Below, piece after piece: positions 13,800 to 56,034 of a DNA stretch of 63,805 bases. This stretch comes from Myxococcales bacterium (GTDB lineage: Bacteria; Myxococcota_A; Polyangia; Polyangiales; Houyiibacteriaceae). Location: positions 1 to 63,805 of the forward strand of contig JAHBWH010000026.1 of NCBI GenBank assembly GCA_019637115.1, read 5' to 3'. The notes beneath the pieces are model-generated. The model searched no databases, was not told the origin of the DNA, and was given only the letters and a program-made list of their open reading frames with translations. The translations under genes and the position numbers were made by a program. Each line of letters opens with the position of its first letter. Position 1 is the stretch's first letter.

Positions 13800-13949
13800 G
13801 CAGCCCGTTGAAGACTCTTCGAGTCCCTCAACGGACTGCCTCTTCTTTCTGGGGTCTTTCGAAAAGACCCCCTCCAGTGGGCAAAGCCCACCGGAGCCTC
13901 CCCCAAAACACGCGGCTCCGTTGAAGAACTAGGTTCTTCAACGGGCTGC
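13800..13949. terminator. Multi-hairpin region between convergent genes, likely bidirectional terminator
   Basis: The 161-base gap between the plus gene ending at 13787 and the minus gene ending at 13949 is almost all inverted repeat. Outer arms of 15 bases, GCAGCCCGTTGAAGA (13800-13814) and its complement (13935-13949), enclose GGGGTCTTT/AAAGACCCC (13851-13871, three-base loop) and GTGGGC/GCCCAC (13878-13892). A perfect 12-base stem, CCGTTGAAGAAC/GTTCTTCAACGG with a three-base loop (13918-13944), competes with the outer arm. Its position fits transcription termination from both sides. Confidence 0.7.
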
Positions 13950-14350
13950 TAACGGAGCCAACCGTCGAAGCGGGTGGGCCCTGGGCCCGGGTCGAGCCAC
14001 CGCTTCGCGGGCGCGTAGACCCGGAAGAAGATCTCGACGAGCGCGCGCGTGCCGGGGCCCCAGGCGTTCCCGACGACGAGCTTCGGGTCGGACAGGCCGT
14101 GGTCGACGAAGTCGACGACCCCGAGCACGGTGCCCTCGAGCTCCGTCCCGCGGGCCACGCGAGCCCCGAGGACGAGCGCGTCGAGCGGGTCGCCGTCCTC
14201 GGACGAGGTGTCGGGCACGCTCCCGTAGTTGAAGAGCGTCGGAAAGGGCGCGACGAAGTGCACCCGGCCGTCGGGTCGCCGCTTCACGAACGAGAAGCGC
14301 GGCACCTCGATGCGTACCCTCACGCGCGCGCCGATCGCTGGGAGCTTCAT
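13949..14350 (-). CDS. Small inorganic pyrophosphatase (family I-like)
   Basis: The 133-residue protein matches the core of soluble family I pyrophosphatases, which hydrolyse PPi to phosphate. It keeps the first-strand Glu (RIEVP), a Lys (SFVKRR), Tyr in FNYGSV, the triple-Asp signature EDGDPLDALVLG, and the Asp/Asp/Lys set in VDFVDHGLSDPKLVV. The Arg and second Glu usual between strands 2 and 3 look replaced. It is shorter than the usual 170-180 residues, mainly at the C-terminus. It is the last gene of the strand that carries the NRPS and PPTase genes, so it may remove PPi released by adenylation domains (inference). ATG 14350 fits the family start. Confidence 0.8.
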   Translation of the reverse strand: MKLPAIGARVRVRIEVPRFSFVKRRPDGRVHFVAPFPTLFNYGSVPDTSSEDGDPLDALVLGARVARGTELEGTVLGVVDFVDHGLSDPKLVVGNAWGPGTRALVEIFFRVYAPAKRWLDPGPGPTRFDGWLR

Positions 14351-14455
14351 CGGGCTGAAGAAGCACGCGCGCGCGTCGACGGCAATCGCGATTCGCAGCC
14401 AGTACCGCGCCAGAGGAGTCTCGACCGGCTGTTCGCGGTCCTCGACCTCGATCTG

Positions 14456-15118
14456 TCAGGGGAGCGTGGTCGCGGTGAGCACGACGTCCCGCTCCCACCG
14501 GACGCTCCCTTCGATCACGTCGCCGACGGCGAACGAGGCCCCGCTCGGCTGCTCGAAGGTCGCCCGCCACGTCCCGCGCAGAGGATCGACCTCGACGCTC
14601 ATCGCCATGAACCCGAGGAACTGCTGGGTCACCAGGTATTGCGCCTTGTACGCGCACTCCTTTGCGCTGAAGATCGCCTTGGCGAGCCGGCCGCGCTCGT
14701 CCGAGGCGCGGGCGGCAAGCCACGCGAGATCCCGCGGCGTGCAGATGCTCTCCCAGAGCTTCGGCGCGAGGGGCTCCGCGTTCTCGACGTCGATCCCGAC
14801 GGCGCGCACCTGCCGAGCCGGCGCGACCGCGGCGGCGCACCACGTCTTCGTGTGCGTGATCGACCCGACGATCCCCGCCGGCCAGACCGGCGCGCGATCC
14901 GCGCCCATCGGGATCTCCAGCGGGCCGACGCCGAGCGTCCCCATCGCCCGACGAGCGAGCGCACGGCCGAGCGCGAACTCCCGCTGACGCGAGACGATCG
15001 CCTTCGCCATCCGCTCGGCTTCGCCCGGATAGAGCGCGTCGAGGTCGACGTCCGCCGTGCGCGGGTCGTCCTCTTCGACCCGCACGACCTCGGGGAGGAT
15101 CGCGCGGAACGGCGTCAT
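14456..15118 (-). CDS. 4'-phosphopantetheinyl transferase (Sfp/EntD type)
   Basis: The 220-residue product transfers phosphopantetheine from CoA to carrier-protein serines. Diagnostic motifs are present: SITHTKTWCAAAV (about 86-98), VGIDVE (about 107-112) with the Mg-binding acidic pair, and FSAKECAYKAQY (about 150-161). Length and motif spacing fit the EntD/Sfp branch that serves secondary metabolism. Its ATG overlaps the stop of the upstream gene by four bases (ATGA), and the NRPS is one gene further upstream. It is therefore very likely the activator of the NRPS and PKS carrier domains in this window. Confidence 0.93.
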   Translation of the reverse strand: MTPFRAILPEVVRVEEDDPRTADVDLDALYPGEAERMAKAIVSRQREFALGRALARRAMGTLGVGPLEIPMGADRAPVWPAGIVGSITHTKTWCAAAVAPARQVRAVGIDVENAEPLAPKLWESICTPRDLAWLAARASDERGRLAKAIFSAKECAYKAQYLVTQQFLGFMAMSVEVDPLRGTWRATFEQPSGASFAVGDVIEGSVRWERDVVLTATTLP

Positions 15119-15702
15119 CGCGGGACCATCGACTCACGCGGCGTCGGCGTCCACGAGACGCGGAGCTCGAGGAAAGGCGCGTCGCCGCCCCCGTGGACGT
15201 CCGTGACCACGACGTCGTCCGCGCCGGTCGCCTCGACCACGCCGTGGAGCCCGCCGCGGAAGTGGTCCCAGACGACGGCAGGGATCGGCGTGGCCGCGTC
15301 GTAGCGGCGGTGCTGGTGCGCCTCTCCGCGATCGACCAGGCGACACGAGAGACCCTCGAAGCTGCTCGGCAAGAGGGCGACGGAGCGTCCGAGCACCTCG
15401 TGCGGTCGCAAGAGACGCGGAGAGACGCTCGCGTCCCGGGCGAGGCGCCGGAACGCGAGGTCGGAGGTCGCGCGCGCGAGCTCGCGCACGGCCTCGGGCC
15501 GACCGCTCACGTCGATGATGGCCTCGTCGACCAGCGCCAACCAGAGCACGGGGTACCAGCCGCCCGCGACCACTTGCGCGAGCGCCTTGGCGACGCCTTG
15601 GCTCCGCGCAGCGAGCGCCTCGCGGACGGGCTCGATCCCGTGGGCGGCGCTCGCTTCGCGGAAGAAACCCGCGAGCAGCTGTCCCGAGACCTGAACGTGC
15701 AC
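15115..15702 (-). CDS. Unknown protein between NRPS and PPTase (DUF2378-like layout, uncertain)
   Basis: The 195-residue protein starts at GTG 15702, seven bases after the NRPS stop, and ends inside the start of the PPTase gene, so it belongs to the operon. It is mainly helical in the first half (an Ala-rich LALVDEAIIDVSGRPE region), with a C-terminal beta part (VWDHFRGGLHGVVEAT, then FLELRVSW). This resembles the layout of the TIGR02265/DUF2378 family that is expanded in myxobacteria, but I cannot confirm membership. It has no signal peptide or membrane span and no catalytic motif I recognise. A regulatory or accessory role in the operon is only inference. Confidence 0.7.
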   Translation of the reverse strand: MHVQVSGQLLAGFFREASAAHGIEPVREALAARSQGVAKALAQVVAGGWYPVLWLALVDEAIIDVSGRPEAVRELARATSDLAFRRLARDASVSPRLLRPHEVLGRSVALLPSSFEGLSCRLVDRGEAHQHRRYDAATPIPAVVWDHFRGGLHGVVEATGADDVVVTDVHGGGDAPFLELRVSWTPTPRESMVPR

Positions 15703-15708
15703 GCCCGC

Positions 15709-18700
15709 TCAGCTCCCGCGTCGCCGCCGCATCAGGTCACGCCGGGCAGCAGCGCGCGCCGCCGCCTTGCCGAGCTCCTGGTGATCGTCGCCCTCCCCTT
15801 CGAGATGACGCGCGAGGTCGCCGAGCACGGGGAAGCGGAAGATGTCGGTGATCGCGAGGCTGGCCCCCGCGAACGCCGCCTTGAGCTCGCGGTGCGCCTG
15901 CACGGCCAGCAGCGAGTGCCCGCCGAGGTCGAAGAAATGATCCTTCGAGCCCACCTGCGAGACGCCGAGGACCTTCTGCCAGACCTCGGCGATCTTGCGC
16001 TCCGAGTCGCTCTCGGGCGCGACGTGCTCGGCCGCTCGCGCGACCTTCACCTCGTCGGGCCTCGGGAGCTTCTTGCGGTCCACCTTCGCGTTCGGCGTGA
16101 GCGGGAAGCTGTCCAAGGTGACGAAGTGGCTCGGGACCATGTACTCGGGCAGCGAGGACGCGAGGTGACGCTTGAGCGCCTCCTCGTCGACCTCCGCGTG
16201 TGTCGTCAGATAGGCGACGAGGCGCTTGTCCCCCGGCGTGTCCTCCCGGGCGATCACGACCGCCTCGCGCACCTCCGGCAGCTCGTTGAGCCGCGACTCG
16301 ATCTCGCCGAGCTCGATCCGGTAACCACGCAGCTTCACCTGGTGGTCGACGCGCCCGAGGAAGTCGAGGACGCCGTCCGCGCGCCATCGGACGAGATCCC
16401 CCGTCCGATACATCCGCCCCCCCTTCACGAAGGGGTTGGCGACGAAGCGCTCCTTCGTGAGCTCGTCCCGGAAGAGGTAGCCGCGCGTCACGCCCGCGCC
16501 GCCGATGTAGAGCTCGCCCGGGACGCCGACCGGCACGGGCTCGAGGTTCGCGTCGAGCACGTAGAGCTGCGTGTTCGCGATCGGGGTGCCGATCGGCGTG
16601 ATGCCGTCACCCGGCTCGGCCGTGTGTGTCGACGACCAGATCGTCGTCTCCGTCGGCCCGTACATGTTCTCGATGCGCGCCCCGGTCAGCGAGCCGAGCT
16701 CCTTGACGAGCGCGCCCGGCAGCGCCTCGCCGCCGATCATGAAGCAGCGCAGGCCTCGGAGCGCCCCGCGCGCGCGATCGTCGAGCGTGAGCAAGCGGGC
16801 CATCGAGGGCGTGCACTGGAGGTGCGTGACTCGCTCACGGTCGAGCTGCGCCGGAACGCTGAAGTCCTCCGAGGGGAGCGTGCTGACCCGGACCGGCTCG
16901 GAGGTCTCGCGGATCACCTCGCCGACCCGCCGGATGCTCTCGAGGACCTTGGGCGTCGGCACGCCATAGTCCACGAGGCACGCGATCTCGTCGACGCCGA
17001 TGGCCTTGAGCTGATTGACCCGACGGACGGCGTCCTCGACGGTCCCGAAGAAGCCGCTGTCCTCGAAGTAGCGGAGGAACGCGAAGTCGAGGATCGCCTC
17101 CATCTCCTCCTCGTCGAGCGAGCGAAGATCGAGGTCGAAGGGGTTCTCCACCCCCTTGGGCTTCTTGAAGGCGGGGAAGGCCCACGCGTATTGCTTGATG
17201 AGCCCCGCGGCGCTGCGGAGGTAGCCCTTCATCGGCTCCCGCGCGACCTCGCGCGCCTTCTCGCGCGTCTCGTCGAGGTAGGTGTGGAGCATCAGCGTGA
17301 CCTTGTAGTCCGCCGGGTTCTTCCCCTGAGCCACCAGCTCTTCGCGGTAGATGCGGATCTTGTCGGCGACCTCGTCGATCGACTGGCCGAGCAGGTGGGT
17401 CAGCACGTTCGAGCCCGCGCGCGCGGCGTCGCGGTAGGTCTCGGGGTTGCCCGCGGTGGTCACCCAGACGTCGAGCTCGCGGCTGACCGGGCGAGGCTGC
17501 GTGACGACCGAGAGCACCGACCCGTCGGCCCGCCCCGTCGGGAAGTCGACCGCCTCGCCGCGCCAGAGCCGCCGCACGACGTCGATCGAGTCGAGCATCG
17601 CCTGCTTGTTGTTCGGTGGCGCGTTCTCGGGCCGCAGGACGAAGTCGTCGGGCTGCCAACCGGACGCGAAGGCCAGGCCGACGCGGCCGTTCGAGAGGTT
17701 GTCGATGATCGCCCACTCCTCGGCGATCCGGATCGGGTGGTGGAGCGGCGCGACGCAAGAGCCCGCGCGGATGTCGAGGTTCTGCGTGACGGCAGCCACC
17801 GCCGCGCCGGTCACGCTCGGGTTCGGGTACGGGCCGCCGAACGCGTGGAAGTGGCGCTCGGGGGTCCAGACGCTGGTGAAGCCGATGCGGTCACCGAGCT
17901 TAGCGCCCTCGAGGAGCACCTCGTACTTCTTCGGGCCCTGCCCGTCGTCGTTGCCCCAATACATCAGGCCGAACGCCATGGGCTTGGCGGCGATCTCGGG
18001 GTCGACCCCGGCCGGCTTCACGCGCTCGCGCTCGCGATGGACGACCACCTTGAACCCGCGGGCGAGCGTCCAGAAGAGCTCGAGCACGGAGATGTCGAAC
18101 GAGAGGCTCGTCACCGCCAAGAGCACGTCCTGGCTTCCGTCCTCGGCGCGCGGGACGCGGGCGTCCATCCCCGTGAAGAAGTTCGAGGCGTTGCGGTGCT
18201 CGACCATCACGCCCTTCGGGCGCCCCGTGGAGCCCGACGTGTAGATCACGTAGGCGAGGTGTTCGGGTCGCGACGTCTCGCCGACGCGATGCGCGGGGGC
18301 GCGCGGGATGTGCGGATCGGCGTCGACGACGATCACCGTCGCGTCCGTGTGCAGGCGCGCCTTCGCCTCCTGGTGGGTGACGACGATCTTCGCGCGGCTG
18401 TCCTCGAGCATCAGCTCGATGCGGTCGGCGGGGTACTCGGGATCCAGCGGCAGGTACGCCCCGCCCGCCTTCAAGATGCCGAGCGCGCCCGTGACGAGCT
18501 CGAGCGAGCGCTGGCAGTAGAGCCCGACGACGGCGTCCGGCCCCACGCCGTGCTGCCGGAGCACGTGGGCGACGCGGTTCGCGCGCTGATCGAGCTCGCG
18601 ATAGGTGAGCTCGAGGCCCTCGAAGACGAGCGCGACCGCGTCTGGGGTGCGATCGACCTGCTCTTCGAAGAGCTGATGCATGGTGGCGTCGGCGCGGTAG

Positions 18701-20274
18701 GGCGTGCCCGTCGCGTTCCACTCGTGGAGGATGCGGCGCCGCTCGACGTCGGTGAGCAGCGGCAATTTGGCGACGAGCGTCTCGTCCTCACCCGTCGCCG
18801 CGAGCAGCACCGAGAGCCGACGCACGAGCGCCTCGACCTCGTCCGTGGAGATCCGTCGCGCGTCGTAGTGGACGGCCGCCTCGGCGAGGGTGAGCGCCGA
18901 GCCCTCCACGAGCGCCGTCGCGGCAGGCGCGATCACGACGTCGAAGCGGGCGGTCGTGGCGGCGGGCCTCCGCGCGACGAGGTCCCGCGGGAAGGTGAAG
19001 CGCTCGTGGACCCGCGCCAGCTCCTTGTCGAGGAGCGCCTGCGCGTCTCCGACCGTCCCCGACACGTCGACGAGGAGCGGCACGGCCGGCGCGAAGAAGT
19101 CCTCGACGCCCACGACGGCGTCGCCGAGGCGCGCGCCGCGATACCCGACGTGGAAGTGGGTCTTGCCACCGACCCGCCCGAGGAACGCGGCGACGCCCGT
19201 GACCCACGCGGGCCCCTCGAGGCCGCTCGGCGCGAGCTCGAGCTGGGCCGGCTCCGCGCCGGCGCCCGCCGTGACGCCTGGCACCTCGACGACGTCGAGC
19301 TCCTCGAGGCGCTTGGCCCAGAAGTCCTCGTGCTTCGCCGCCTCGGCGTTCTTCTCGGTCAAGGTCGCGCGGAGCGCAGCGTCCGGGGTGGGCAGCGTCA
19401 GCCCGACGAGCGTCGAAGGGCAGCGCGGCTTGCCCTCGAGATCGCTGAGCGCGAGCAGCTTGACCGCCCCCGTGCCGCACGCGACGACCGCGCCCTCGGG
19501 GGTGGCCTCGAGCACCTTGCCGATGGGTCCGCTCGCCGAGCTGGGCTCCGCCGCCCGGATCAGCACGACATCGCCGGGCCCGACGAGGACCTTCGGCAGC
19601 CCGAGCGGGTTGGGGTACTTCGGGCCGTAGTCGAGCGCGCGAACGGGGACGACGATCGACTCGGCGTCCTGGGCCCAGTCGACGAGCGCCATCGCCTCGG
19701 GGCGATCGTTCTTCGCGAAGTAGGTGCGGCGCGAGAGATCTTGCGGGACCCCCTTGCCCTCACCCCGCTCGATCTTCTCGAGCACTTCGGGAAACGACTC
19801 GATGGCCGCCTCGTAGCAGCGCTGGTTGAGCTCGAGCGCGGTCGCGAGCTTCGGGACCTCGAAGAAGCGCTGGGCGAGCACGGCGCCCTCGTCGACGCCG
19901 CCCTCGATGCGGTGCCAGGTCACGCCGTGCTGGGGCTCGCGGTTCAGCAGCGCCCAGTTCGGCGCGTTGAGCCCGGCGTACTTCGGCAGCGGGCCATCGT
20001 GGAAGTTCACCGCGCCCTGGCGCGCGCGCGCGAGGATCGCGTCGGGGACGATGCGGAGGTTCGCGATGGAGAAGAACCAGTCGAACTCCTCGCTGAGCCG
20101 CTCCGCGAGCCCCTTGCCGGGCTCGAGCACCGGGATGCCCCGACCGCGCGCCCACGAAGCGATGTCGCGGTTGTCGGTGATGACCCCCCGCACGGTGTGC
20201 CCGCGCTGCAGGAGGATCTCGGCGCACTGCACGAGCAGCGACTCGGCGCCCATCAGGTAGGAGCTGAAGCTCAT
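15709..20274 (-). CDS. NRPS: formyltransferase / C-lobe / A domain with inserted luciferase-like monooxygenase / PCP
   Basis: This 1521-residue protein opens with a 10-formyl-THF formyltransferase domain keeping the catalytic Asn90, His92 (NFHDGPLPKYAG) and Asp128 (EGGVDEG), with its C-terminal part to about 285. A stretch at about 320-480 resembles only the C-terminal lobe of a condensation domain, without HHxxxDG. The A domain follows, with A3 YTSGSTGRPKG at 678. Between A4 (FDISVLELFW) and A5 (YGPTE at 1205) sits a luciferase-like monooxygenase of about 355 residues (766-1120) of the MupA/Atu3671 type. A8 is near 1318, A10 has NAKVDRKK, and the carrier Ser is 1454 in LGGHSL. There is no thioesterase. 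I infer it loads an amino acid, N-formylates it and oxidises it on the carrier. ATG 20274 has AAAGG upstream; the longer frame upstream lacks homology. Confidence 0.95.
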   Translation of the reverse strand: MSFSSYLMGAESLLVQCAEILLQRGHTVRGVITDNRDIASWARGRGIPVLEPGKGLAERLSEEFDWFFSIANLRIVPDAILARARQGAVNFHDGPLPKYAGLNAPNWALLNREPQHGVTWHRIEGGVDEGAVLAQRFFEVPKLATALELNQRCYEAAIESFPEVLEKIERGEGKGVPQDLSRRTYFAKNDRPEAMALVDWAQDAESIVVPVRALDYGPKYPNPLGLPKVLVGPGDVVLIRAAEPSSASGPIGKVLEATPEGAVVACGTGAVKLLALSDLEGKPRCPSTLVGLTLPTPDAALRATLTEKNAEAAKHEDFWAKRLEELDVVEVPGVTAGAGAEPAQLELAPSGLEGPAWVTGVAAFLGRVGGKTHFHVGYRGARLGDAVVGVEDFFAPAVPLLVDVSGTVGDAQALLDKELARVHERFTFPRDLVARRPAATTARFDVVIAPAATALVEGSALTLAEAAVHYDARRISTDEVEALVRRLSVLLAATGEDETLVAKLPLLTDVERRRILHEWNATGTPYRADATMHQLFEEQVDRTPDAVALVFEGLELTYRELDQRANRVAHVLRQHGVGPDAVVGLYCQRSLELVTGALGILKAGGAYLPLDPEYPADRIELMLEDSRAKIVVTHQEAKARLHTDATVIVVDADPHIPRAPAHRVGETSRPEHLAYVIYTSGSTGRPKGVMVEHRNASNFFTGMDARVPRAEDGSQDVLLAVTSLSFDISVLELFWTLARGFKVVVHRERERVKPAGVDPEIAAKPMAFGLMYWGNDDGQGPKKYEVLLEGAKLGDRIGFTSVWTPERHFHAFGGPYPNPSVTGAAVAAVTQNLDIRAGSCVAPLHHPIRIAEEWAIIDNLSNGRVGLAFASGWQPDDFVLRPENAPPNNKQAMLDSIDVVRRLWRGEAVDFPTGRADGSVLSVVTQPRPVSRELDVWVTTAGNPETYRDAARAGSNVLTHLLGQSIDEVADKIRIYREELVAQGKNPADYKVTLMLHTYLDETREKAREVAREPMKGYLRSAAGLIKQYAWAFPAFKKPKGVENPFDLDLRSLDEEEMEAILDFAFLRYFEDSGFFGTVEDAVRRVNQLKAIGVDEIACLVDYGVPTPKVLESIRRVGEVIRETSEPVRVSTLPSEDFSVPAQLDRERVTHLQCTPSMARLLTLDDRARGALRGLRCFMIGGEALPGALVKELGSLTGARIENMYGPTETTIWSSTHTAEPGDGITPIGTPIANTQLYVLDANLEPVPVGVPGELYIGGAGVTRGYLFRDELTKERFVANPFVKGGRMYRTGDLVRWRADGVLDFLGRVDHQVKLRGYRIELGEIESRLNELPEVREAVVIAREDTPGDKRLVAYLTTHAEVDEEALKRHLASSLPEYMVPSHFVTLDSFPLTPNAKVDRKKLPRPDEVKVARAAEHVAPESDSERKIAEVWQKVLGVSQVGSKDHFFDLGGHSLLAVQAHRELKAAFAGASLAITDIFRFPVLGDLARHLEGEGDDHQELGKAAARAAARRDLMRRRRGS

Positions 20275-20422: not shown

Positions 20423-21433
20423 TCACTCTCCGGTGATGCTGAGGAGCAGGGCGGCCGTGAGCGCGATGTTCGCCGGGTCGGTGATGATGGAGCTGACGCG
20501 ACCCAGCACCTCGCCGACGTGGGCGGTCCACTCCTCGGTGACGTAGAGGATGTCGCCGGACGCCAGCAAGACGTCGCTCCGGTTGCCGTTGACGATCGCG
20601 CGGAGGCTGGCGCGGTAGACGAGCGGCCGGTCGAGCGAGCCTCGGACGATGTGGATGTCCGTCCGGTCGCCGCGCTCGTTCAAGCCTCCGGACCGGGCGA
20701 GCGCCTCCGTCAAGCGCATCCCGTCACGATAGGCGAGCACGCGCGGCGTGCCCACCGCGCCGAGGACCACGATGGCGCGATCCCGAGCCGTCGGGACGTA
20801 GAGGTGGTCTCCTGGGAGAACCCGGACGTTGTGGCGCGGGTCCCCCTCGAGCGCGAGAGACATGGAGATGGGCAGGGTCCGGCCGCGCCTGACGATCCGA
20901 GCGCTGCCGAGGTCCGCGATGGGCCCCGTCGACGGCCCCGAGGGCTCGACGGTGTCCGCCGGCCCCTCGACGGCCGCGATGAGATCCGCCACCCGCATGC
21001 CTGGCGTCACCAGGACGCGGCCGGGGGAGCGCACGGCGCCCACGACGGTCGCCCGGTGCCCCACGGGGTCCGAGATCGAGAGCGCGACCTGCACGACGCG
21101 GTCGATCCGCCGCATCGCGTCCCGAATGATCACCTCGGCCTCCGAGAGCGGTCGCCCGCCGACGTCGACCGCGCCGACGAGCGGCAGGTGCGCGTTGCCC
21201 TGCTCGTCGACGACGATTCCCTCGTGCACGGTCACCTCGGCCGAGAACGCCCGGATCGTGAGCACGTCACCCGGGAGCACCATCATCGGCACCGGCGGGG
21301 TGTCGTCCATCCCCTCTTGTGCCGCGACGGGCGGCGCGGTGAACGCGCCATCGTCCGTCGGAAGCGTGGGTGCGTCCGGAAGGCGCACGCACGCGCACGT
21401 GAGGATCCATCCCACGACGAGCCCCTGCCTCAT
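20423..21433 (-). CDS. Outer-membrane polysaccharide export protein (Wza/OPX family)
   Basis: The 336-residue protein begins with a hydrophobic signal (MRQGLVVGWILTCAC) and a Pro-rich linker. The polysaccharide-export domain follows (MMVLPGDVLTIRAFSAEVTVHEGIVVDEQGNAHLPLVG), then two SLBB-type segments: VVGAVRSPGRVLVTPGMRVADLI, and VLGAVGTPRVLAYRDGMRLTEALARSGGL. The C-terminus carries a moderately hydrophobic segment. OPX proteins form the outer-membrane exit for Wzx/Wzy glycans with a Wzc/Wzz partner, here probably the protein at 31494. ATG 21433 was chosen for the signal peptide; ATG 21475 is possible. It is divergent from the initiating sugar transferase (167-base gap). Confidence 0.9.
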   Translation of the reverse strand: MRQGLVVGWILTCACVRLPDAPTLPTDDGAFTAPPVAAQEGMDDTPPVPMMVLPGDVLTIRAFSAEVTVHEGIVVDEQGNAHLPLVGAVDVGGRPLSEAEVIIRDAMRRIDRVVQVALSISDPVGHRATVVGAVRSPGRVLVTPGMRVADLIAAVEGPADTVEPSGPSTGPIADLGSARIVRRGRTLPISMSLALEGDPRHNVRVLPGDHLYVPTARDRAIVVLGAVGTPRVLAYRDGMRLTEALARSGGLNERGDRTDIHIVRGSLDRPLVYRASLRAIVNGNRSDVLLASGDILYVTEEWTAHVGEVLGRVSSIITDPANIALTAALLLSITGE

Positions 21434-21600
21434 GGGTGCGTTTAGTACCAGGGTCGCGCGGGCCAATCCAGCCATTCTCGAACCTTGCACCCCGTCGACG
21501 GGCCCGGTAAGTACCGGCTCGGGCGCATGTCGAACGAGCCAACGAGGGGGACGAGAGGGCGAGCGCCCGAGGCCCCCGGCCCCACAACCAGATTTCTCCG

Positions 21601-23004
21601 ATGGCGGGTTGGGTGAGAGAGCATTCGCCGGTCCTGAACGTGGCCATGCGCCTCGTGGACGCAGCCCTGATCGCCGCCGTGCACTTCGTGGCGGTCACGC
21701 TCATCGCCAAGGAGGATTGGCGCGACCTCCACACCGAGGCCACCATCGTGGCGCTCGTGCTCTTCTACTTCGTAGGTCAGAGCATGGGCCTCTACGTCGC
21801 GTGGCGTGGCGGCACGACCACCCGCGAGACGGGGCGCGTGTTCGCGGCGTGGGCGCTGACGGCGGGCGTGCTCCTCATGCTCGGCTTCGTCTCGAAGCGC
21901 TCGGCGGAGTACTCGCGGCTCATCACGATCCTCTGGGCGTCGGGCTCGCCGCTCGCGCTCGCGCTCTGGCGCGGGTGCCTGCGCTTCGGCCTACGACAAG
22001 CGCGGATCCGGGGCCGCAACACCCGAACGGTCGCGATCGCCGGGCTCACCGAGCTCGGCGAGCGTGTCGCGCGGACGATCCACGACAGCCCGTGGCTCGG
22101 GATGCGCATCGTCGGCTTCTTCGACGACCGCTTCGAGGAGCGCTGCCACCCGATCCCCTCCGAGCTCGGCAAGCGCGAGGGCAACCTCGACGACGTGATC
22201 GACCTGGCGCGCAAGAACGAGGTCGACATCGTCTACATCGCGCTCCCGCTCCGCGCCGAGACGCGCGTCACCGACCTCGTGCGCCGGCTCGCGGACAGCA
22301 CCGCCAGCGTCTACATGGCGGCGGACTTCGACGCCTTCGATCTGCTCAGCGCGCGCTGGGGTCAGCTCGGCGGCGTCCCGGTCGTCAGCATCCACGAGAC
22401 ACCGTTCTACGGCGTCTCCGGCTGGCTCAAGCGGCTCGAGGACATCGTCGTCGGCTCGATGATCCTCGCCCTCATCGCCGTGCCGATGCTCTTCATCGCG
22501 CTCGGCGTGAAGCTCACCTCCAAGGGCCCCGTGTTCTTCCGGCAGCGGCGCTACGGGCTGAACGGCGAGGTCATCCACGTCCTCAAGTTCCGCTCGATGA
22601 CGGTGGCGGAGGACGGAGCCGACGTGAAGCAGGCGACGAAGAACGACCAACGCATCACGAAGTTCGGGGGCTTCTTGCGGCGGACCTCGCTCGACGAGCT
22701 CCCGCAGTTCCTGCACGTCATCACGGGCACGATGAGCATCGTCGGTCCGCGGCCGCACGCCGTCTCGCACAACGAGCAGTACCGCAAGCAGATCGAGGGC
22801 TACATGCTCCGCCACAAGGTCAAGCCGGGCATCACGGGCTGGGCCCAGGTCAACGGCTGGCGCGGCGAGACGGACACGCTCGAGAAGATGGAGCAGCGCA
22901 TCGCGCACGACCTCGCGTACATCCGCAACTGGTCGCTGCTCTGGGACCTGCAGATCATCTTCCTGACGGTCTTCGGCCGGAAGGTCCGCAAGAACGCCTA
23001 TTGA
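21601..23004 (+). CDS. Initiating undecaprenyl-phosphate sugar phosphotransferase (WcaJ/EpsZ-like)
   Basis: This 467-residue polytopic protein has four N-terminal membrane spans, a CoA-binding-like Rossmann domain (VAIAGLTELGERVARTIHD), a fifth span (about 285-310) and the C-terminal bacterial sugar transferase domain. That domain has GPVFFRQRRYGLNGE, LKFRSMTV, RRTSLDELPQFLHVITGTMSIVGPRP and KPGITGWAQVNGWRGET. Such enzymes place the first hexose-1-phosphate on undecaprenyl phosphate at the inner membrane and start each repeat unit. Of the proteins in this window it is the clearest start point of an exopolysaccharide pathway. The sugar (Glc or Gal) cannot be read. Confidence 0.95.
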   Translation: MAGWVREHSPVLNVAMRLVDAALIAAVHFVAVTLIAKEDWRDLHTEATIVALVLFYFVGQSMGLYVAWRGGTTTRETGRVFAAWALTAGVLLMLGFVSKRSAEYSRLITILWASGSPLALALWRGCLRFGLRQARIRGRNTRTVAIAGLTELGERVARTIHDSPWLGMRIVGFFDDRFEERCHPIPSELGKREGNLDDVIDLARKNEVDIVYIALPLRAETRVTDLVRRLADSTASVYMAADFDAFDLLSARWGQLGGVPVVSIHETPFYGVSGWLKRLEDIVVGSMILALIAVPMLFIALGVKLTSKGPVFFRQRRYGLNGEVIHVLKFRSMTVAEDGADVKQATKNDQRITKFGGFLRRTSLDELPQFLHVITGTMSIVGPRPHAVSHNEQYRKQIEGYMLRHKVKPGITGWAQVNGWRGETDTLEKMEQRIAHDLAYIRNWSLLWDLQIIFLTVFGRKVRKNAY

Positions 23005-23933: not shown

Positions 23934-30491
<6,558 letters not shown>

Positions 30492-30496
30492 GACCG

Positions 30497-39258: not shown

Positions 39259-39289
39259 TCCTCTCCCGACGCGCACGCCCGAGCCTGTC

Positions 39290-50820: not shown

Positions 50821-53745
50821 ATGCACGAGGCGGAGCTCCCACTCACGCCGACGCAGGAGGGGATGTTGTTCAACGGGCTCGCGGAGGCGGGCGCCGAGGT
50901 GCAACAGCTCGTCGTGCAGCCGCCGCGTTCCTTCGACGACGTCGAGCAAATGCGGCTCGCCTGGGGGGCGGCGCTCGCTCGCCACCCGATGCTCCGCGCT
51001 TCGTTCCGCTGGCGAGGCGTCACCGCGCCCTGCCAGCGGGTGCACGAGGCGGTCGAGCTCCCCTGGGAGGTACTTCACCAGGAGCTCGATCGCGAGGCCG
51101 CCTTGCGGCTCTTCCTCCGCCTCGACCGGCTGACGCCGCTCCCGCTCGAGAGAGCGCCCGCGTTTCGGCTCACGCTGCTCCGCGCGCGGGACGGCGACGC
51201 GCTCGTGTGGACACACCACCACGCGCAGCTCGACGGGCGCTCGCTCGAGCTCGTCCTGCTCGACGTGCTGGGCGCGCTCGCGGGCGCGCCGCCTCCCGCC
51301 GCGCCCTCTCCGTCCGTCGAGCCCCACCTTCGCGCCATCGAGGCCGGCCGCGGCCCGCGCCAGGACGAGTTCTTCGCGTCGCGCTTCGCCGACCTCTGGG
51401 AGCCGACCCCGCTGCCGGGACCCCGGCCAGCAGCCTCGGCCGAGGCAGAAGCCGACGAACGACACCTCGAGCACGAGTACATGGCGTGCGGGGAGTGGCT
51501 CGACGCGCTCGAGCGGCAGGGCGAGGCGGAGGGCTTCACCCTCGCGACCGCGATCCAGGCGGCGTGGGCCACCGTGCTGGCGCGCTACGCCGGCACGTCC
51601 GACGTCACCTTCTGCGTCACGCGCGCCTGCCGGCACGTCACGTCGGAGAGCGCGGCGATGGTCGGCTGCCTCATCAACACGGTGCCGCTGCGGGTCGACG
51701 TCGACGCCAGCCCCTCGGCGCGGGCGCTCGCGAGGTCGCTCCGCGCCGAGAGCCTCGCCCTCCGTGAGCACGAGACGGTCGCGCTACGCCGCGTCGCCGA
51801 GCTCTCGCCCCTCACGTCCGCGGCAGACCTCGCCCGGTCGGTGGTGGTCGTCGAGGGGCATGGCCTCGAAGACCGCGTCCGCGCGAGCTTCCCCGAGCTC
51901 GCGTCCTGGCGGCTGTCGCTCCGCGGGCGGAGCGCCGCGCCGCTCACGTTGGCCGCGTACCGGCGCCCGGACGGTCTGCAGCTCGTCGTCGAGCACGACC
52001 GACGTCGGGTCGCCGCCTCCATCGCGTCGACGCTCGGCCGGCGGGTGGAGCGCGCGCTGCGGGCGTTCGCCACCGATCTGGATCGCGCGCCCGCCGAGGC
52101 GCCGCTGACGTTCTCGACCGAGCACGCGCCGCTGCGCGGCGAGGACGTCGCGATCGACACGAGCCCGCCGACCTTCCCCGCGCGCTTCGTGGCGGCCGCG
52201 GAGCGCTCGCCCCACAAGGTGGCCCTCGTGGACGAAGCCACGGGGCGCGAGGTCTCCTACGCCGAGCTGCTCGCGCAGGCGCGTGCCTGCGTCGAGCGTC
52301 TCCGCGCCGACGGCGCGAAGGCGGGGGACGTCGTCGCGGTCTGGGCCGGCCGCCGCGTCGAGACGATCGAGGCGATGGTCGCGTGCGCGCTCGGAGGCCT
52401 GGTCTACTTCCCGCTCGATCCCGCGTATCCCCCCGACCGTACCGCCTTCGTCCTCCGAGACTCCGGCGCGCGCTGGTACCTCGCCCCCTCGTATGTCCCC
52501 GCGACGGACCTCCCCCCGCTCGACGACGTGACGCTGGTGCGCCTCGAGCCGCCCGCGGCCCCGCGACCGCCGGAGCTCGCCGACGCCCCGCGCGTGGTCG
52601 GCCTCGGCGACGGCCCGCACACGGCCGCGCGGCGCGACCGAGGCCCCGCGGACCACGCAGACGCGACGACGCCCGCCGCGGGTGAGGCCGCATACCTCAT
52701 CTACACCTCGGGAAGCACCGGCACCCCCAAAGGCGTGCTCGTCTCCCATGGGAACCTCGCGGCGCATACGTCCGCCGCGCTCGAGACCTACGCGCTCAGC
52801 GACTCAGATCGGGGGATGCTCTTCGCGTCGCCGAGCTTCGACGTCTCGCTCGAGGAGGTCGTCCCGCTCCTCTCCGTCGGCGGCTCGCTCGTCATCCGCT
52901 CGGACGCCACCGCGAGCTCACCCGACCGCTTGCTGAGCACGGTCGCGAGCCACGGCGTGACCGTGCTCCAGCTCCCGACGGCGTTCTTCCACGAGCTCGC
53001 GCGGCACATGGAGCGGCGCCGCGCGTCGCTTCCAGCGAGCGTTCGGCTCGTCGTGATCGGGGGCGAGCGGGCGAGCGCGTCGGCCTGTCGGCGCTTCCGG
53101 TCCGTCGCCCCCGACGTCCGCCTCGTGAACGCCTACGGGCCGACCGAGGTCACGATCACCGCCACCAGCTACGACGTGCCACGCGAGGTGCCCAGCACCA
53201 TCCCGATCGGGCGCCCCTTCGGCCGCTGCCACGCCTACGTGCTCGACGCGCGAGGTGCCCCCGTCCCCACCGGCGCGCGGGGCGAGCTCGCCCTCGGCGG
53301 GCCCCAGGTCGCGATCGGCTATCACGATCGCCCCGAGCCGACCGCGGCGCGGTTCGTCGCCGATCCGGTCGACCCTTCGCGTGGGCGCGTGTACCTGACG
53401 GGCGATCTGGTGCAGCTCGGCGCGGGGGGCGAGCTCGAGTTCCTCGGGCGCCGCGACGGCCAGGTGAAGGTCCGAGGGTTTCGCATCGAGCTCGCGGAGG
53501 TCGAGGCCGCGCTCGAGCAGGACGACGACGTCGCCGAGGCGGTCGCCACGGTGCTGGACGCGCCGAGCGGCGAGCCCACGCTCGTCGCGTTCGTCGTGGG
53601 GCGGACCCCGCGCCTCGACCTCGTCGCCATCGACCGCCGCTTGCGCCAGCGGCTGCCGCCGCAGCACGTCCCCGCGCGGATCGCGTCGCTCGACGCCCTG
53701 CCCCGCGCGCCCGGCGGCAAGCTCGACCGACGCGCGCTGCAGTGA
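50821..53745 (+). CDS. NRPS condensation-adenylation protein; PCP-TE continues in frame after TGA
   Basis: The 974-residue product has a condensation domain (about 5-430) with an intact HHAQLDG at 133-139 (HHxxxDG), and an adenylation domain (about 460-970). The latter has A3 IYTSGSTGTPKG near 625, A4 PSFDVSLEEVV, A5 NAYGPTEVTI near 771, A7 YLTGDLV, A8 GRRDGQVKVRGFRIEL and A10 PGGKLDRR. The stop TGA (53743-53745) follows A10 directly. The next codons continue without a frame change into a carrier and thioesterase, so the natural gene was probably C-A-PCP-TE. Alternatives are a base error, a nonsense mutation, readthrough, or a real split. The gene follows the protease after 54 bases and is the only visible protein here with a full C domain. 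Confidence 0.92.
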   Translation: MHEAELPLTPTQEGMLFNGLAEAGAEVQQLVVQPPRSFDDVEQMRLAWGAALARHPMLRASFRWRGVTAPCQRVHEAVELPWEVLHQELDREAALRLFLRLDRLTPLPLERAPAFRLTLLRARDGDALVWTHHHAQLDGRSLELVLLDVLGALAGAPPPAAPSPSVEPHLRAIEAGRGPRQDEFFASRFADLWEPTPLPGPRPAASAEAEADERHLEHEYMACGEWLDALERQGEAEGFTLATAIQAAWATVLARYAGTSDVTFCVTRACRHVTSESAAMVGCLINTVPLRVDVDASPSARALARSLRAESLALREHETVALRRVAELSPLTSAADLARSVVVVEGHGLEDRVRASFPELASWRLSLRGRSAAPLTLAAYRRPDGLQLVVEHDRRRVAASIASTLGRRVERALRAFATDLDRAPAEAPLTFSTEHAPLRGEDVAIDTSPPTFPARFVAAAERSPHKVALVDEATGREVSYAELLAQARACVERLRADGAKAGDVVAVWAGRRVETIEAMVACALGGLVYFPLDPAYPPDRTAFVLRDSGARWYLAPSYVPATDLPPLDDVTLVRLEPPAAPRPPELADAPRVVGLGDGPHTAARRDRGPADHADATTPAAGEAAYLIYTSGSTGTPKGVLVSHGNLAAHTSAALETYALSDSDRGMLFASPSFDVSLEEVVPLLSVGGSLVIRSDATASSPDRLLSTVASHGVTVLQLPTAFFHELARHMERRRASLPASVRLVVIGGERASASACRRFRSVAPDVRLVNAYGPTEVTITATSYDVPREVPSTIPIGRPFGRCHAYVLDARGAPVPTGARGELALGGPQVAIGYHDRPEPTAARFVADPVDPSRGRVYLTGDLVQLGAGGELEFLGRRDGQVKVRGFRIELAEVEAALEQDDDVAEAVATVLDAPSGEPTLVAFVVGRTPRLDLVAIDRRLRQRLPPQHVPARIASLDALPRAPGGKLDRRALQ

Positions 53746-53826
53746 CCCGCTGCGGCTGCCGCCTCGGCCACGACGGAGCCTGTCTCCGCCGACGAGGCGC
53801 GGCTGCTCGACCTGTTCCGGGAGGTC

Positions 53827-54804
53827 TTGGAGAGCCCCGAGATGGGGGTCGACGACCGCTTCTTCGACCGAGGCGGCAGCTCGATCCGCGCCGTCCGCTT
53901 GATCTCGCGGATCGAGGAGGAGCTCCAAGGCGCGCCCACGGTGGCGACGATCCTGACGCACCAGACCCCGCGCGCGATCGCCGCCTGGCTGCGAGAGCAT
54001 GGGCAATCCACGCCCTCCGAGTCGCTCGTCCTCCTCAACGGCGACCACTCGAAGCGCACCCCGCTCTACTGTCTGCTCGGGCTGCACCTCTACGAAGAGA
54101 TGGCGCGCTCGTTCCGCCGACCCGTCTACGGCGTGTACGTGGAAGAAGATCTCGAGGCGATGAGCCGCGCGGTGCGCACGCCCGATCTCGCGGCGGCGTA
54201 CCTCCGCGCCATCGAGCGACAGGCGGGGCAGCCGCCGAAGCTGCTGCTCGGCTTCTCGTACGGGGCGCTCGTCGCGTTCGAGGCGGCGCAACAGCTCACC
54301 CGTCGCGGCACGCCGCCCGATCTGCTCGTGATGCTCGACCCCCTCTTGCCGAGCATGCTCGAAGAGGGCCCACTCGACCGAGCCTACAACCTCGCCGCGC
54401 GCCTGCTCCGCGATCCGGCGAGCATCGCGCCGCGGCTGGCGCGGAGGGTCGCGGCGCGCGTCCGCGCGCTCGACGTCGTCCCGACGCGGGCGACCGGAGA
54501 CGACCTCGTCTGGCAGATCCGAGAGCGCGCCTACATGCGCGCGTCCGAGGACTACGAGGCCAACGAGCTCGCGCCCTATCCGGGCCGCTGCCAGGTCTAC
54601 GTCGCGCAGGACCGCTCCCCCGCGCACACGCCCCGGGTCGTCGCCGGGTGGCGCTCGCTGATCCGGCAGTGCGAGATCCACGTCGTCCCGGGCGACCACG
54701 GCACCCTGCTCCAGCCCCCGTACGTGGACGAGATCGCCGAGCGCCTCGGCAGCGCCCTCCGGGCGCGGACCTCGATGCGGATGTTGGCGGTCGACGGGGA
54801 GTAG
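53827..54804 (+). CDS. NRPS PCP-thioesterase part (homology begins at 53746, same frame as the gene upstream)
   Basis: From TTG 53827 this gives 325 residues. The frame is open back to the TGA at 53743-53745 and reads like a normal carrier N-terminus (SADEARLLDLFREVLE), but it has no ATG or GTG there. TTG 53827 would cut off much of carrier helix 1, and ATG 53842 more. The carrier has GGSS with the modified Ser at 53881-53883. The thioesterase has GFSYG (Ser at 54256-54258), Asp in VMLDPLLPS and His in PGDHGTLLQPP. It should release the chain made on the upstream C-A protein. Whether it is made as a separate protein is doubtful. Confidence 0.75.
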   Translation: MESPEMGVDDRFFDRGGSSIRAVRLISRIEEELQGAPTVATILTHQTPRAIAAWLREHGQSTPSESLVLLNGDHSKRTPLYCLLGLHLYEEMARSFRRPVYGVYVEEDLEAMSRAVRTPDLAAAYLRAIERQAGQPPKLLLGFSYGALVAFEAAQQLTRRGTPPDLLVMLDPLLPSMLEEGPLDRAYNLAARLLRDPASIAPRLARRVAARVRALDVVPTRATGDDLVWQIRERAYMRASEDYEANELAPYPGRCQVYVAQDRSPAHTPRVVAGWRSLIRQCEIHVVPGDHGTLLQPPYVDEIAERLGSALRARTSMRMLAVDGE

Positions 54805-54849
54805 TCGCGGGCAGTAGTCGCGGCGCGCGGCCTCGGGTATGACGCCCCC

Positions 54850-56034
54850 ATGCTCTCCACGCTCCTCGGCCTCGGCGGCGCCGCCGCGACGCTCCCCGGC
54901 ACCCTCGAGCTCGCGCTCCTCACGGCGGCGGGCGCCCTGCCGCCGACCGAGCCCGGCGCACCCACGCGGCCCGTTCGGAGGCTCGCCGTGGTCGTCCCCG
55001 CGCACGACGAAGAAGGCGGCATCGCGTCGTGCGTGAAGAGCCTCCTCGGCTGCGCGCGCCCGCAAGCCCCCGTCGAGGTCCTCGTCGTCGCCGACAATTG
55101 CAGCGACGGCACCGCGGCGCGGGCACGCGAAGCGGGCGCGACCGTGCTCGAGCGCCACGACACCGAGCGGCGCGGCAAGGGCTACGCGCTCGAGCTCGCG
55201 TTCGACACCTTGCTCGAGCGCTTCCCCGACCTCGACGGCGTCTTGGTCGTCGACGCGGACACCGAGGTCGACCCGGACTTCCTCGTCTGCGCCGAGCGAT
55301 GGTTCGCGGCCGGCGCCGACGCGGTGCAGGCCCGCTACCTCGTGCGCAACGCGGACGAGTCGACCCGCACGGCGCTCATGAACGCGGCCTTCATGGCGTT
55401 CAACGTGCTCCGCCCGCGCGGCCGCGCCCGCCTCGGGCTCTCCGCTGGCATCCTCGGCAACGGCTTCGGGCTCAGCCGCCGCTCCCTCGAGGCGGTGCCC
55501 TACACCGCGCGCTCCGTCGTGGAGGATCTCGAGCACCACCTCCACCTCGTCCGCGCGGGTTTCAAGGTCGAGTTCATGGACGAGACCGCCGTCCGCGCCG
55601 ACTTTCCCGTCGGCGAGAGAGGCGCCGACACGCAGCGCGCGCGCTGGGAGGGCGGGCGCCTGCGGATGCTCCGCGAGCACGCGCCTCCGCTCGCCAAAGA
55701 GGTCTTGGCCGGAGACCTCCGGCTCGCCGAGCCCCTGCTCGAGCTCCTGCTGCTGCCGCTCGCGACCCACGTCGGCCTCCTCGGGGCCCTCGCCCTCGTG
55801 CCCTTCCCGCCGACGCAGCTCTACGCGGCGACCGCGCTCGGCGTCGTGGGCGCCCACGTCGCGACGGCGATGAAGGTCGGCGGCGCGGGCCGGACCGAGC
55901 TCGCCGCGCTCGCGCGCGCGCCGCTCTACGTGCTCTGGAAGGCGCGCGTGCTGCCGAAGATCCTGCAAGCGGCGTCCCGCGATCAGGCGTGGGTGCGGAC
56001 CGCTCGCGCGACCGAAGAGACGCCGGCGGGCTGA
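54850..56034 (+). CDS. Glycosyltransferase family 2, membrane type
   Basis: The 394-residue protein shows the family 2 motifs AVVVPAHDEEGGIASCVKSLL (about 46-66), VVADNCSDGTAARARE, the metal motif GVLVVDADTEVDPDF and the late QRARWEGGR, the Q-x2-RW type seen in processive or lipid-linked transferases. A weakly hydrophobic N-terminus and two hydrophobic segments near the end indicate membrane association. It follows the PCP-TE reading frame by 46 bases on the same strand, so a peptide-making and a sugar-adding enzyme are paired again, as in the PKS-GT2 pair at 23934-31453. Confidence 0.9.
   Translation: MLSTLLGLGGAAATLPGTLELALLTAAGALPPTEPGAPTRPVRRLAVVVPAHDEEGGIASCVKSLLGCARPQAPVEVLVVADNCSDGTAARAREAGATVLERHDTERRGKGYALELAFDTLLERFPDLDGVLVVDADTEVDPDFLVCAERWFAAGADAVQARYLVRNADESTRTALMNAAFMAFNVLRPRGRARLGLSAGILGNGFGLSRRSLEAVPYTARSVVEDLEHHLHLVRAGFKVEFMDETAVRADFPVGERGADTQRARWEGGRLRMLREHAPPLAKEVLAGDLRLAEPLLELLLLPLATHVGLLGALALVPFPPTQLYAATALGVVGAHVATAMKVGGAGRTELAALARAPLYVLWKARVLPKILQAASRDQAWVRTARATEETPAG

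What the first reader, a model, noticed from the sequence alone, without database searches (positions are those of the whole stretch)
13949..56034. NRPS and PKS genes interleaved with a nearly complete Wzx/Wzy exopolysaccharide pathway
Seen: an initiating sugar transferase, WecG-like, Wzx, Wzy-like, Wzz-like and OPX genes share about 25 kb with a one-module PKS. NRPS genes flank both sides, and the PPTase sits between a glycosyltransferase pair and the export gene. Twice a thioesterase-ending assembly-line gene is followed directly by a family 2 glycosyltransferase (23934-31453 and 50821-56034). Inference: the peptide/polyketide product is attached to, or exported with, the glycan, giving a lipopeptide- or acyl-decorated exopolysaccharide. 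I know of no described pathway with this combination, but I cannot search.
Basis: partly seen in the sequence, partly recalled or inferred. Interest (0 to 1): 0.8.

Follow-up and report, generated by a model that had tools for sequence, protein, structure and literature searches.

The report
Assembly-line cassette inside sugar-polymer gene clusters
A small antibiotic-style assembly line (a formyl-glycine-type loading enzyme plus a one-step polyketide enzyme, usually with its own sugar-transferring enzyme) sits again and again inside gene clusters for bacterial surface sugars, which suggests that these bacteria use it to build an unusual chemical group that is attached to their sugar coat.

Summary
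Observation largely confirmed. The window (myxobacterial draft contig) holds a near-complete Wzx/Wzy locus interleaved with two assembly-line genes that belong together: formyltransferase-adenylation(glycine-type)-luciferase-like monooxygenase-carrier (15709-20274), and KS-AT-KR-DH-ACP-TE (about 23934-30491) followed by a GT2. They form a recurrent cassette. Of the 80 best loci for the loading module, 57 have PKS-GT2-loading module contiguous on one strand; 49 of these, and 58 of the 80, carry at least one of six polysaccharide markers within about 10 kb, against 2 of 32 control NRPS loci. PKS and loading-module distances correlate (r=0.93). In another family of the order the same two modules start ordinary NRPS lines, which gives the order: loading, then PKS.
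The second NRPS (50821-54804, in-frame stop) is not part of it; in the same genus its intact homologue lies near the DNA ligase gene, without the EpsU-like GT2.
Best reading: the cassette makes one small formyl-glycine-derived acyl group that is attached to a sugar of the exported polysaccharide. The pathway link is well supported, the chemistry inferred. Polysaccharide loci without the cassette exist, so it is accessory. Ten literature searches found no description.

The parts
15709..20274 (-). FT-A(LLM insert)-T loading module (ORF open to 20370; ATG at 20274 fits the homologues): formyltransferase, about 230 residues without Pfam match, A domain with glycine-type code DILQMGMIWK split by a TIGR04020 luciferase-like monooxygenase, carrier domain
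23934..30491 (+). One-module PKS, KS-AT-KR-DH-ACP-TE, catalytic motifs conserved
30488..31453 (+). GT2a, GT-A family 2 glycosyltransferase of the cassette, weak match to rhamnosyltransferases; start GTG overlapping the PKS stop, or ATG at 30500
14456..15118 (-). Sfp-type 4'-phosphopantetheinyl transferase
   Evidence: downstream of the FT gene in 53 of 57 contiguous cassettes
15115..15702 (-). Unknown small protein between PPTase and FT gene; homologue in the same place in G001 and G006
13949..14350 (-). Inorganic pyrophosphatase-like protein
11557..12801 (+). GT4/GT1-type glycosyltransferase
12813..13787 (+). GT2-type glycosyltransferase (GTx); next to PKS-GT2a in G001, G034 and G180
20423..21490 (-). 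OPX outer-membrane polysaccharide export protein, 148 bp upstream of the FT gene
21601..23004 (+). WcaJ-type undecaprenyl-phosphate hexose-1-phosphate transferase
23043..23813 (-). WecG/TagA/CpsF glycosyltransferase
31494..33458 (-). Wzz/PCP-like chain-length protein
33510..35177 (+). PMT_2 family membrane glycosyltransferase
35208..36344 (+). SGNH-like protein a (36% identical to the one at 42735)
36366..37793 (-). Wzy-like polymerase (weak PF04932)
38035..39258 (+). GT4 glycosyltransferase, EpsE-like (below the equivalog cut-off)
39158..40669 (+). Wzx flippase (true start probably near 39260)
40775..42658 (+). Unknown protein (labelled GH? in my scripts; no Pfam match below E 0.05); homologues in 10 of 57 contiguous cassette loci
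42735..43739 (+). SGNH hydrolase or acyltransferase fold (DUF4886-like, PatB-like)
43834..44691 (+). SAM methyltransferase
50821..53745 (+). NRPS C-A, not part of the cassette; ends at an in-frame TGA
53746..54804 (+). NRPS T-TE in the same frame behind the TGA, not part of the cassette
54850..56034 (+). EpsU-like GT2 (below the equivalog cut-off), perhaps of the polysaccharide pathway but not a conserved partner of the NRPS before it

Best explanation
The locus makes a Wzx/Wzy-dependent exopolysaccharide, and the FT-A-LLM-T plus PKS pair is a two-module assembly line that supplies one small acyl group for it. Shown here: the two proteins recur as a cassette, usually with GT2a and a PPTase, mostly near polysaccharide genes, and keep their catalytic motifs and a glycine-type code. 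Inferred steps: (1) the PPTase activates both carriers; (2) the A domain loads glycine, the FT domain formylates its amine, and the monooxygenase oxidises the bound residue, most likely at the alpha carbon; (3) the KS takes this starter, adds one malonyl-type unit, and KR and DH reduce and dehydrate it (for example 4-formamido-3-hydroxybutanoyl or the 2-enoyl derivative, with or without oxidation at C4); (4) the TE passes the acyl group to a sugar, either lipid-linked or nucleotide-bound, and GT2a adds that sugar or the next one to the undecaprenyl-linked repeat; (5) Wzx flips, Wzy and Wzz polymerise, OPX exports. The cassette is an accessory decoration module of a variable polysaccharide locus.
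For: Gene order PKS-GT2a-FT on one strand in 57 of 80 loci, PPTase behind it in 53 of 57; the homologous starts lie within 30 bases of the preceding stop in 54 of 57 (PKS to GT2a) and 48 of 57 (GT2a to FT). At least one of six polysaccharide markers in 58 of 80 loci and 49 of 57 contiguous cassettes, against 2 of 32 control NRPS loci of the order; with Wzx, Wzy, WcaJ and OPX alone 52 of 80, 44 of 57 and 2 of 32; with Wzx and Wzy alone 41, 38 and 1. In the window's family f1 and in f3, FT stands with OPX upstream (45 bp to 4.3 kb) in 15 of the 19 genomes that have FT, window included (read). FT and long KR-DH matches: 26 and 33 of 183 genomes, 23 shared, hypergeometric 2e-18 without correction for kinship. 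Distance matrices: PKS-FT r=0.934 (n=79), PKS-GT2a 0.838 (n=66), PKS-Wzx 0.906 (n=33), none of 2000 permutations as high. Same A-domain code type in 98 of 99 rows. In G120, G123 and G176 FT-A-LLM-T is followed directly by a PKS whose match stops before the TE, and then by NRPS domains, which gives the order loading-then-PKS. Named plasmids of Ruegeria (two), Parasedimentitalea, Aminobacter and Paracoccus show the cassette among sugar transferases, flippases, WecB/TagA or OPX genes and, in R. conchae, dTDP-rhamnose genes.
Against: No chemistry was seen; context does not prove attachment. 22 of 80 loci show none of the six markers. Some are short contigs, and one (L187, Aminobacter) belongs to a species whose plasmid has O-antigen ligase and OPX genes just beyond the stretch, but Anaerolineae, Rhodothermota and the myxobacterial line G123 may be free natural-product clusters. 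8 of 57 contiguous cassettes lack a marker within the stretch. Marker profiles were seeded from window proteins. All 57 contiguous cassettes are Pseudomonadota, 50 of them Rhodobacterales, so they are not independent; of the 58 loci with a marker 54 are Pseudomonadota, 3 Myxococcota, 1 Verrucomicrobiota. Correlated distances also reflect shared host ancestry; FT-OPX is weak (r=0.42, n=14, 3 of 2000). At least 12 genomes of the window's family hold Wzz homologues without FT or PKS. Control loci come from one order and are on average shorter (16.3 against 19.5 kb). Of the 19 f1/f3 genomes with FT, PKS and FT share a contig in 9: within about 10 kb in G000, G001, G004 and G012, 20-32 kb apart in G043, G181 and G177, about 50 kb apart in G009 and G015; in the other 10 they lie on different contigs of drafts. 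G001, G011 and G012 have no OPX near FT. A TE usually hydrolyses or cyclises; transfer to a sugar is assumed.
Confidence: 0.62

Rival explanations
1. The cassette makes a free, diffusible small molecule (signal, metallophore or antibiotic), perhaps glycosylated once by GT2a, and only shares a locus and regulation with matrix polysaccharide genes.
For: Same modules occur at the start of NRPS lines in G120, G123 and G176; TE domain at the end; 22 of 80 loci without a polysaccharide marker; polysaccharide loci without the cassette. Earlier authors treat such clusters as secondary metabolism (passages of PMC4062626 and PMC8273931).
Against: 58 of 80 against 2 of 32 context counts; a glycosyltransferase gene between PKS and loading module in 57 of 80. 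Among the window ORFs scanned with Pfam and in the five annotated plasmid stretches I saw no obvious small-molecule exporter beside the cassette, apart from a TolC family gene in Aminobacter; the plasmid gene tables are incomplete.
Confidence: 0.2
2. The PKS product is an anchor or primer (a small acyl or lipid terminus) of the polysaccharide, comparable to what may hold for RkpA/WcbR in capsule clusters, rather than a substituent of every repeat.
For: Type I PKS genes wcbR/rkpA lie in capsule biosynthesis clusters (passages of PMC3908369).
Against: Loading is by a glycine-type FT-A module, not by a fatty-acyl module; one KS module with a TE; the window has WcaJ, Wzx, Wzy-like, Wzz-like and OPX genes, and no ABC exporter among the ORFs scanned.
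Confidence: 0.1
3. Coincidental neighbours: secondary-metabolite genes that happened to land in a variable polysaccharide island.
For: The C-A/T-TE gene with the EpsU-like GT2 at 50821-56034 appears to be such a case.
Against: The cassette association recurs in 23 named genera of contiguous loci and across families f1 and f3.
Confidence: 0.05

Closest known systems
F-A-T glycine loading modules of oxazolomycin (OzmO) and conglobatin (CongA), and the F-A-T start of linear gramicidin synthetase (LgrA)
   Same: Formyltransferase fused to A and carrier; glycine-specific A domain before a PKS as in CongA (passages of PMC4504003); LgrA gives the best matches among solved structures by sequence.
   Different: Monooxygenase inserted in the A domain; product released after one PKS module; located in polysaccharide loci.
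Monooxygenase-in-A-domain modules (MtaG/MelG of myxothiazol and melithiazol; recalled, not read here) and TIGR04020 LLM domains
   Same: LLM of the MupA/Atu3671 family inside a glycine-type A domain between A4 and A5; PuwE is the LLM match among the 60 solved chains shown.
   Different: Here at the loading position with an FT domain, not at chain end; activity untested.
RkpA/WcbR type I PKS of capsule clusters
   Same: A type I PKS among polysaccharide genes (passages of PMC3908369).
   Different: Here an NRPS loading module, TE, cassette GT2 and Wzx/Wzy genes; sequence relation to RkpA/WcbR not tested.
Myxococcus EPS (eps) Wzx/Wzy locus
   Same: GTs resemble EpsA, EpsE and EpsU models, all below the curated cut-offs; PHPT, OPX and Wzz functions.
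   Different: No NRPS/PKS in the M. xanthus eps cluster, as recalled.
Unassigned PKS/NRPS genes of Phaeobacter inhibens (Inhi_1972, Inhi_1974) and the HSL-PKS-NRPS hybrid cluster of Paracoccus marcusii CP157
   Same: PKS and NRPS separated by one gene number in Phaeobacter (passage of PMC4062626); the Paracoccus paper says its hybrid cluster also occurs in Paracoccus sp. Arc7-R13 (passage of PMC8273931), whose plasmid carries the cassette.
   Different: The passages read treat them as secondary metabolism without a polysaccharide link; identity with the cassette is my inference.

Membership tests
Wzx/Wzy-dependent polysaccharide pathway | Initiating phosphohexose transferase | tested here: met
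   TIGR03023 533.5 bits, cut-off 410.75
Wzx/Wzy-dependent polysaccharide pathway | Wzx flippase | tested here: met
   PF13440 150.9 bits, cut-off 23
Wzx/Wzy-dependent polysaccharide pathway | Wzy polymerase | tested here: inconclusive
   PF04932 21.2 bits under a cut-off of 31.7; homologues in polysaccharide loci
Wzx/Wzy-dependent polysaccharide pathway | Wzz/PCP and OPX | tested here: inconclusive
   OPX met (PF02563 and SLBB above cut-off); Wzz PF02706 20.4 bits under 25.5, TIGR03007 79.3 under 278.85
NRPS formyl-loading module (LgrA/CongA type) | FT with N, H, D active-site positions (positions recalled from Fmt), fused to A and T | tested here: met
   NFHDGPLP and the D of GGVDEG conserved over 21 rows and over 99 rows, nearly invariant
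NRPS formyl-loading module (LgrA/CongA type) | Glycine-type adenylation code | tested here: met
   DILQ[MLFYH]GM[IV]WK in 98 of 99; the glycine code itself (DILQLGLIWK) is recalled
NRPS formyl-loading module (LgrA/CongA type) | Formylation of the bound amino acid | not testable with these tools
   needs enzyme assay
Complete type I PKS module with release | KS C-H-H, AT serine, KR S-Y-N, DH H and D, ACP serine, TE triad (motifs recalled) | tested here: met
   motif residues conserved in over 90% of 89 PKS rows
RkpA/WcbR capsule PKS | Sequence clade of RkpA/WcbR ketosynthases | not tested
   no RkpA/WcbR sequence was at hand
RkpA/WcbR capsule PKS | ABC-transporter (Kps-type) capsule export genes nearby (criterion recalled) | tested here: not met
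   no ABC exporter among the ORFs scanned; Wzx, Wzz-like and OPX instead
Alpha-hydroxylating monooxygenase-in-A domain (MtaG/MelG type, recalled) | LLM inserted in a glycine A domain | tested here: met
   TIGR04020 457 bits, residues 800-1151 between the A-domain halves; code
Alpha-hydroxylating monooxygenase-in-A domain (MtaG/MelG type, recalled) | Alpha-hydroxylation of glycyl | not testable with these tools
   needs enzyme assay

The most novel reading that the evidence does not exclude
A widespread, undescribed class of assembly-line-decorated exopolysaccharides: a PKS-GT2-(FT-A-MOX-T)-PPTase cassette, partly plasmid-borne, builds one conserved formyl-glycine-derived acyl group and places it on a deoxysugar (perhaps rhamnose) of Wzx/Wzy glycans in Myxococcota, Rhodobacterales, Burkholderiales and others, so that NRPS/PKS chemistry is part of the structural surface polymer rather than of a free metabolite.
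Probability: 0.5. Interest if true: 0.88.

Novelty: new variant of a known kind. Interest (0 to 1): 0.77.

Why it matters
NRPS/PKS clusters are usually annotated as makers of free metabolites. If this cassette decorates exopolysaccharide, many PKS-NRPS hybrid clusters of Rhodobacterales and myxobacteria with unknown product would be glycan-modifying systems, their products would have been sought in the wrong fraction, and surface properties (adhesion, phage or predator recognition, charge) would be open to a new kind of chemistry. Culturable hosts (Ruegeria, Shimia, Hydrogenophaga, Paracoccus) make it directly testable.

Tried and rejected
Rejected: lipopeptide attached to the glycan (no fatty-acyl loading or complete C domain found in the cassette). 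Rejected: the C-A/T-TE gene with the EpsU-like GT2 as a second glycan-linked unit. A C-domain search of 37 relatives matched 7 genomes, G000 itself included, at 14 places. In G001, the same genus, the homologue is one open frame of 1289 aa about 5 kb from the LigA gene, with no EpsU hit in 18.5 kb. Of the 12 places outside the window and G001, 8 lie in my control stretches; no control stretch has an EpsU hit. Rejected: PPTase position as evidence for the cassette, since G002 has OPX-PPTase-PPase without NRPS/PKS in the 40 kb fetched.

Led nowhere: sequence search of GT2a in the PDB gave no match; fold search gave the general GT-A fold. The SGNH protein resembles SGNH esterases and PatB O-acetyltransferase, which does not tell transfer from hydrolysis. 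Ten literature searches listed no paper that I could see to describe NRPS/PKS cassettes in Wzx/Wzy loci. I judged by listings and, for seven papers, by passages found by term; no paper was read whole, and most subscription papers are not in that library. The Mantel value for PKS against WcaJ was undefined. Comparison with RkpA/WcbR sequences was not done.

In one search the frame of GT2a relative to the PKS stop fits a 4-base overlap in 40 of 57 (about 19 expected by chance).

Rows dropped before counts: loading-module ORFs outside 1400-1800 aa, PKS ORFs of 1900 aa or less, hits under stated bit and coverage limits and five loci that duplicate genomes already counted. may hold a few genomes twice.

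Full report
What is there. The window is one whole contig (63,805 bases) of an 8.88 Mb draft genome in 434 contigs. Profile searches give the gene list under 'parts'. Housekeeping genes flank the region: SMC 5417-9049 and NAD-dependent DNA ligase 56058-58178.

The two assembly-line genes. The gene at 15709-20274 reads formyltransferase, a stretch of about 230 residues that Pfam does not name (to my eye the C-terminal half of a condensation domain; one search gave no match), an A domain split by a TIGR04020 luciferase-like monooxygenase, and a carrier domain. Over 99 rows the active-site stretches of the formyltransferase are kept, and the ten specificity positions read DILQMGMIWK (63), DILQLGMIWK (15), DILQFGMIWK (14) or near variants, 98 of 99 in all; I recall DILQLGLIWK as a glycine code. 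The gene at about 23934-30491 reads KS-AT-KR-DH-ACP-TE; catalytic motif residues are kept over 89 rows, with an unusual AT motif AAHS.

They are one pathway. In 183 genomes of the order the formyltransferase part occurs in 26 and a long KR-DH match in 33; 23 genomes have both (hypergeometric 2e-18, not corrected for kinship). In the window's own family the same 11 genomes have each. In family f12 (G120, G123, G176) the two genes are adjacent, the PKS match stops before the TE, and NRPS domains follow: there they look like the first two modules of an ordinary line. In G068 (f9) they are adjacent, with TE. So I take the FT gene as loading module and the PKS as first extension module; in the window's group the line ends after that step with a TE.

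They sit in polysaccharide loci. In families f1 and f3 the FT gene has OPX upstream in 15 of the 19 genomes that have FT, window included (read): 45 to 173 bp away in 12, and 2 to 4.3 kb away in G006, G009 and G015. Of the other four, the G013 contig is only 3.1 kb, G001 has OPX on another contig, G011 has none in the 8 kb upstream, and G012 has another arrangement. PKS and FT share a contig in 9 of the 19 (adjacent to about 50 kb apart) and lie on different contigs in 10.

A PKS match over 400 bits lies near the FT gene in 70 of 80, a GT2a match over 200 bits in 59, a PPTase match in 61. PKS-GT2a-FT are contiguous and on one strand in 57 of 80, with PPTase behind in 53; starts lie within 30 bases of the preceding stop in 54 of 57 and 48 of 57. 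With profiles for Wzx, Wzy, WcaJ, OPX, Wzz and WecG, 58 of 80 loci and 49 of 57 contiguous cassettes hold at least one, against 2 of 32 control loci around condensation domains of the same order (Fisher 6e-11 and 4e-14). Without Wzz and WecG the counts are 52 of 80 against 2 of 32; with Wzx and Wzy alone 41 of 80 against 1 of 32. Limits: profiles seeded from the window, shorter control stretches from one order, and 50 of 57 cassettes from Rhodobacterales (23 named genera in all, 14 loci without a genus name).

Five annotated plasmid stretches agree (Ruegeria sp. SCSIO 43209, R. conchae, Parasedimentitalea marina, Aminobacter niigataensis, Paracoccus sp. Arc7-R13): type I PKS, a GT2 behind it (not in Aminobacter, where PKS and FT are divergent) and 'MupA/Atu3671 family' protein, with sugar transferase genes in four, flippase genes in three, WecB/TagA in two, O-antigen ligase and OPX in Aminobacter, and dTDP-rhamnose genes in R. 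conchae.

Co-inheritance. Pairwise protein distances correlate for PKS-FT (r=0.934, n=79), PKS-GT2a (0.838, n=66), GT2a-FT (0.828, n=71), PKS-Wzx (0.906, n=33), FT-Wzz (0.698, n=13) and PKS-PPTase (0.508, n=59), each with none of 2000 permutations as high; FT-OPX is weaker (0.42, n=14, 3 of 2000). In a FastTree of 88 PKSs all 66 rows with GT2a fall in one branch of 77 rows (support 98); outside it are eleven rows without GT2a, among them the assembly-line PKSs of G120, G123 and G176. The GT2a label needs 5 changes against 19.6 in shuffles. The root is only a midpoint, and several long rows are unsure.

What does not belong. The NRPS at 50821-54804 is interrupted by an in-frame TGA at 53743-53745 between A and carrier domain. 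In G001, the same genus, the homologue is one open frame of 1289 aa on a contig that also holds LigA (81% identical, about 5 kb away), with no EpsU hit and no hit to a polysaccharide gene in the 18.5 kb fetched. So this NRPS is a neighbour of LigA, intact elsewhere, and in the window either decaying, split, or hit by a sequencing error.

Results against the glycan link. Polysaccharide loci without the cassette are common: G002 has PPase-PPTase-OPX-WcaJ-Wzz-Wzx-Wzy with no NRPS/PKS in 40 kb, and 12 listed genomes of the family have Wzz homologues at E 1e-60 or better but no FT or PKS match at 1e-30. So the glycan machinery works without the cassette, as expected of an accessory decoration, but also as expected of an unrelated neighbour. 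22 of 80 loci show no marker.

Mechanism. GT2a is a confident GT-A model (pLDDT 92) with a weak match to rhamnosyltransferases (TIGR01556, 41 bits under a cut-off of 200). I propose: glycine loading, formylation, oxidation by the inserted monooxygenase, one ketide extension, TE-mediated transfer to a sugar, GT2a adding that sugar or its neighbour, then flipping, polymerisation and export. Only gene content, motifs and association are shown; each chemical step is inferred. The SGNH protein 42735-43739 (lipoprotein-like N-terminus by eye; SGNH fold) is a second candidate for adding or removing acyl groups.

Known relatives. Formyl-glycine loading before a PKS is known from conglobatin and oxazolomycin (passages of PMC4504003). 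Type I PKS genes in capsule clusters are known as rkpA/wcbR (passages of PMC3908369). Phaeobacter inhibens T5 has a PKS (Inhi_1972) and an NRPS (Inhi_1974) that may be this cassette; the passage read lists them as secondary metabolism (PMC4062626). A hybrid cluster of Paracoccus marcusii CP157, said to occur also in Paracoccus sp. Arc7-R13, may be it as well and is treated as a maker of bioactive compounds (passages of PMC8273931; compare). The searches listed under Tried and rejected showed no description of the combination.

Noticed in passing
window 53743-53745: In-frame TGA splits a C-A-T-TE NRPS; no ATG precedes the carrier domain behind it. The homologue in the same genus (G001:C161) is one open frame. 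Nonsense mutation, gene split or assembly error.
   Followed up: partly
window 40775-42658: Protein without Pfam family whose homologues recur in Rhodobacterales cassette loci (10 of 57).
   Followed up: partly
window 35208-36344 and 42735-43739: Two related SGNH proteins (36% identity) in one locus; tandem pairs also occur in Rhodobacterales cassette loci (L121, L126, L149, L176).
   Followed up: partly
window 31494-33458: Wzz-like protein with a C-terminal part that looks like a degenerate tyrosine-kinase domain (by eye).
   Followed up: no
window 46317-49166: 949-residue ORF with a C-terminal sulfatase domain; homologue (71%) between PKS and FT in G001:C532.
   Followed up: no
window 58564-59940: ORF with a PHB/PHA accumulation regulator domain next to the DNA ligase gene.
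   Followed up: no
G012:C39 (L067, L068): FT-A-LLM-T matches in two pieces (31-364 and 535-1527) with a gap between them, in a second polysaccharide locus: possible split, deletion or frameshift.
   Followed up: no
plasmids of Rhizobium, Bradyrhizobium, Sinorhizobium, Mycetohabitans: More distant FT-NRPS genes (about 30-36% identity), some annotated as NRPS/PKS, possibly other natural-product lines with the same loading logic.
   Followed up: no
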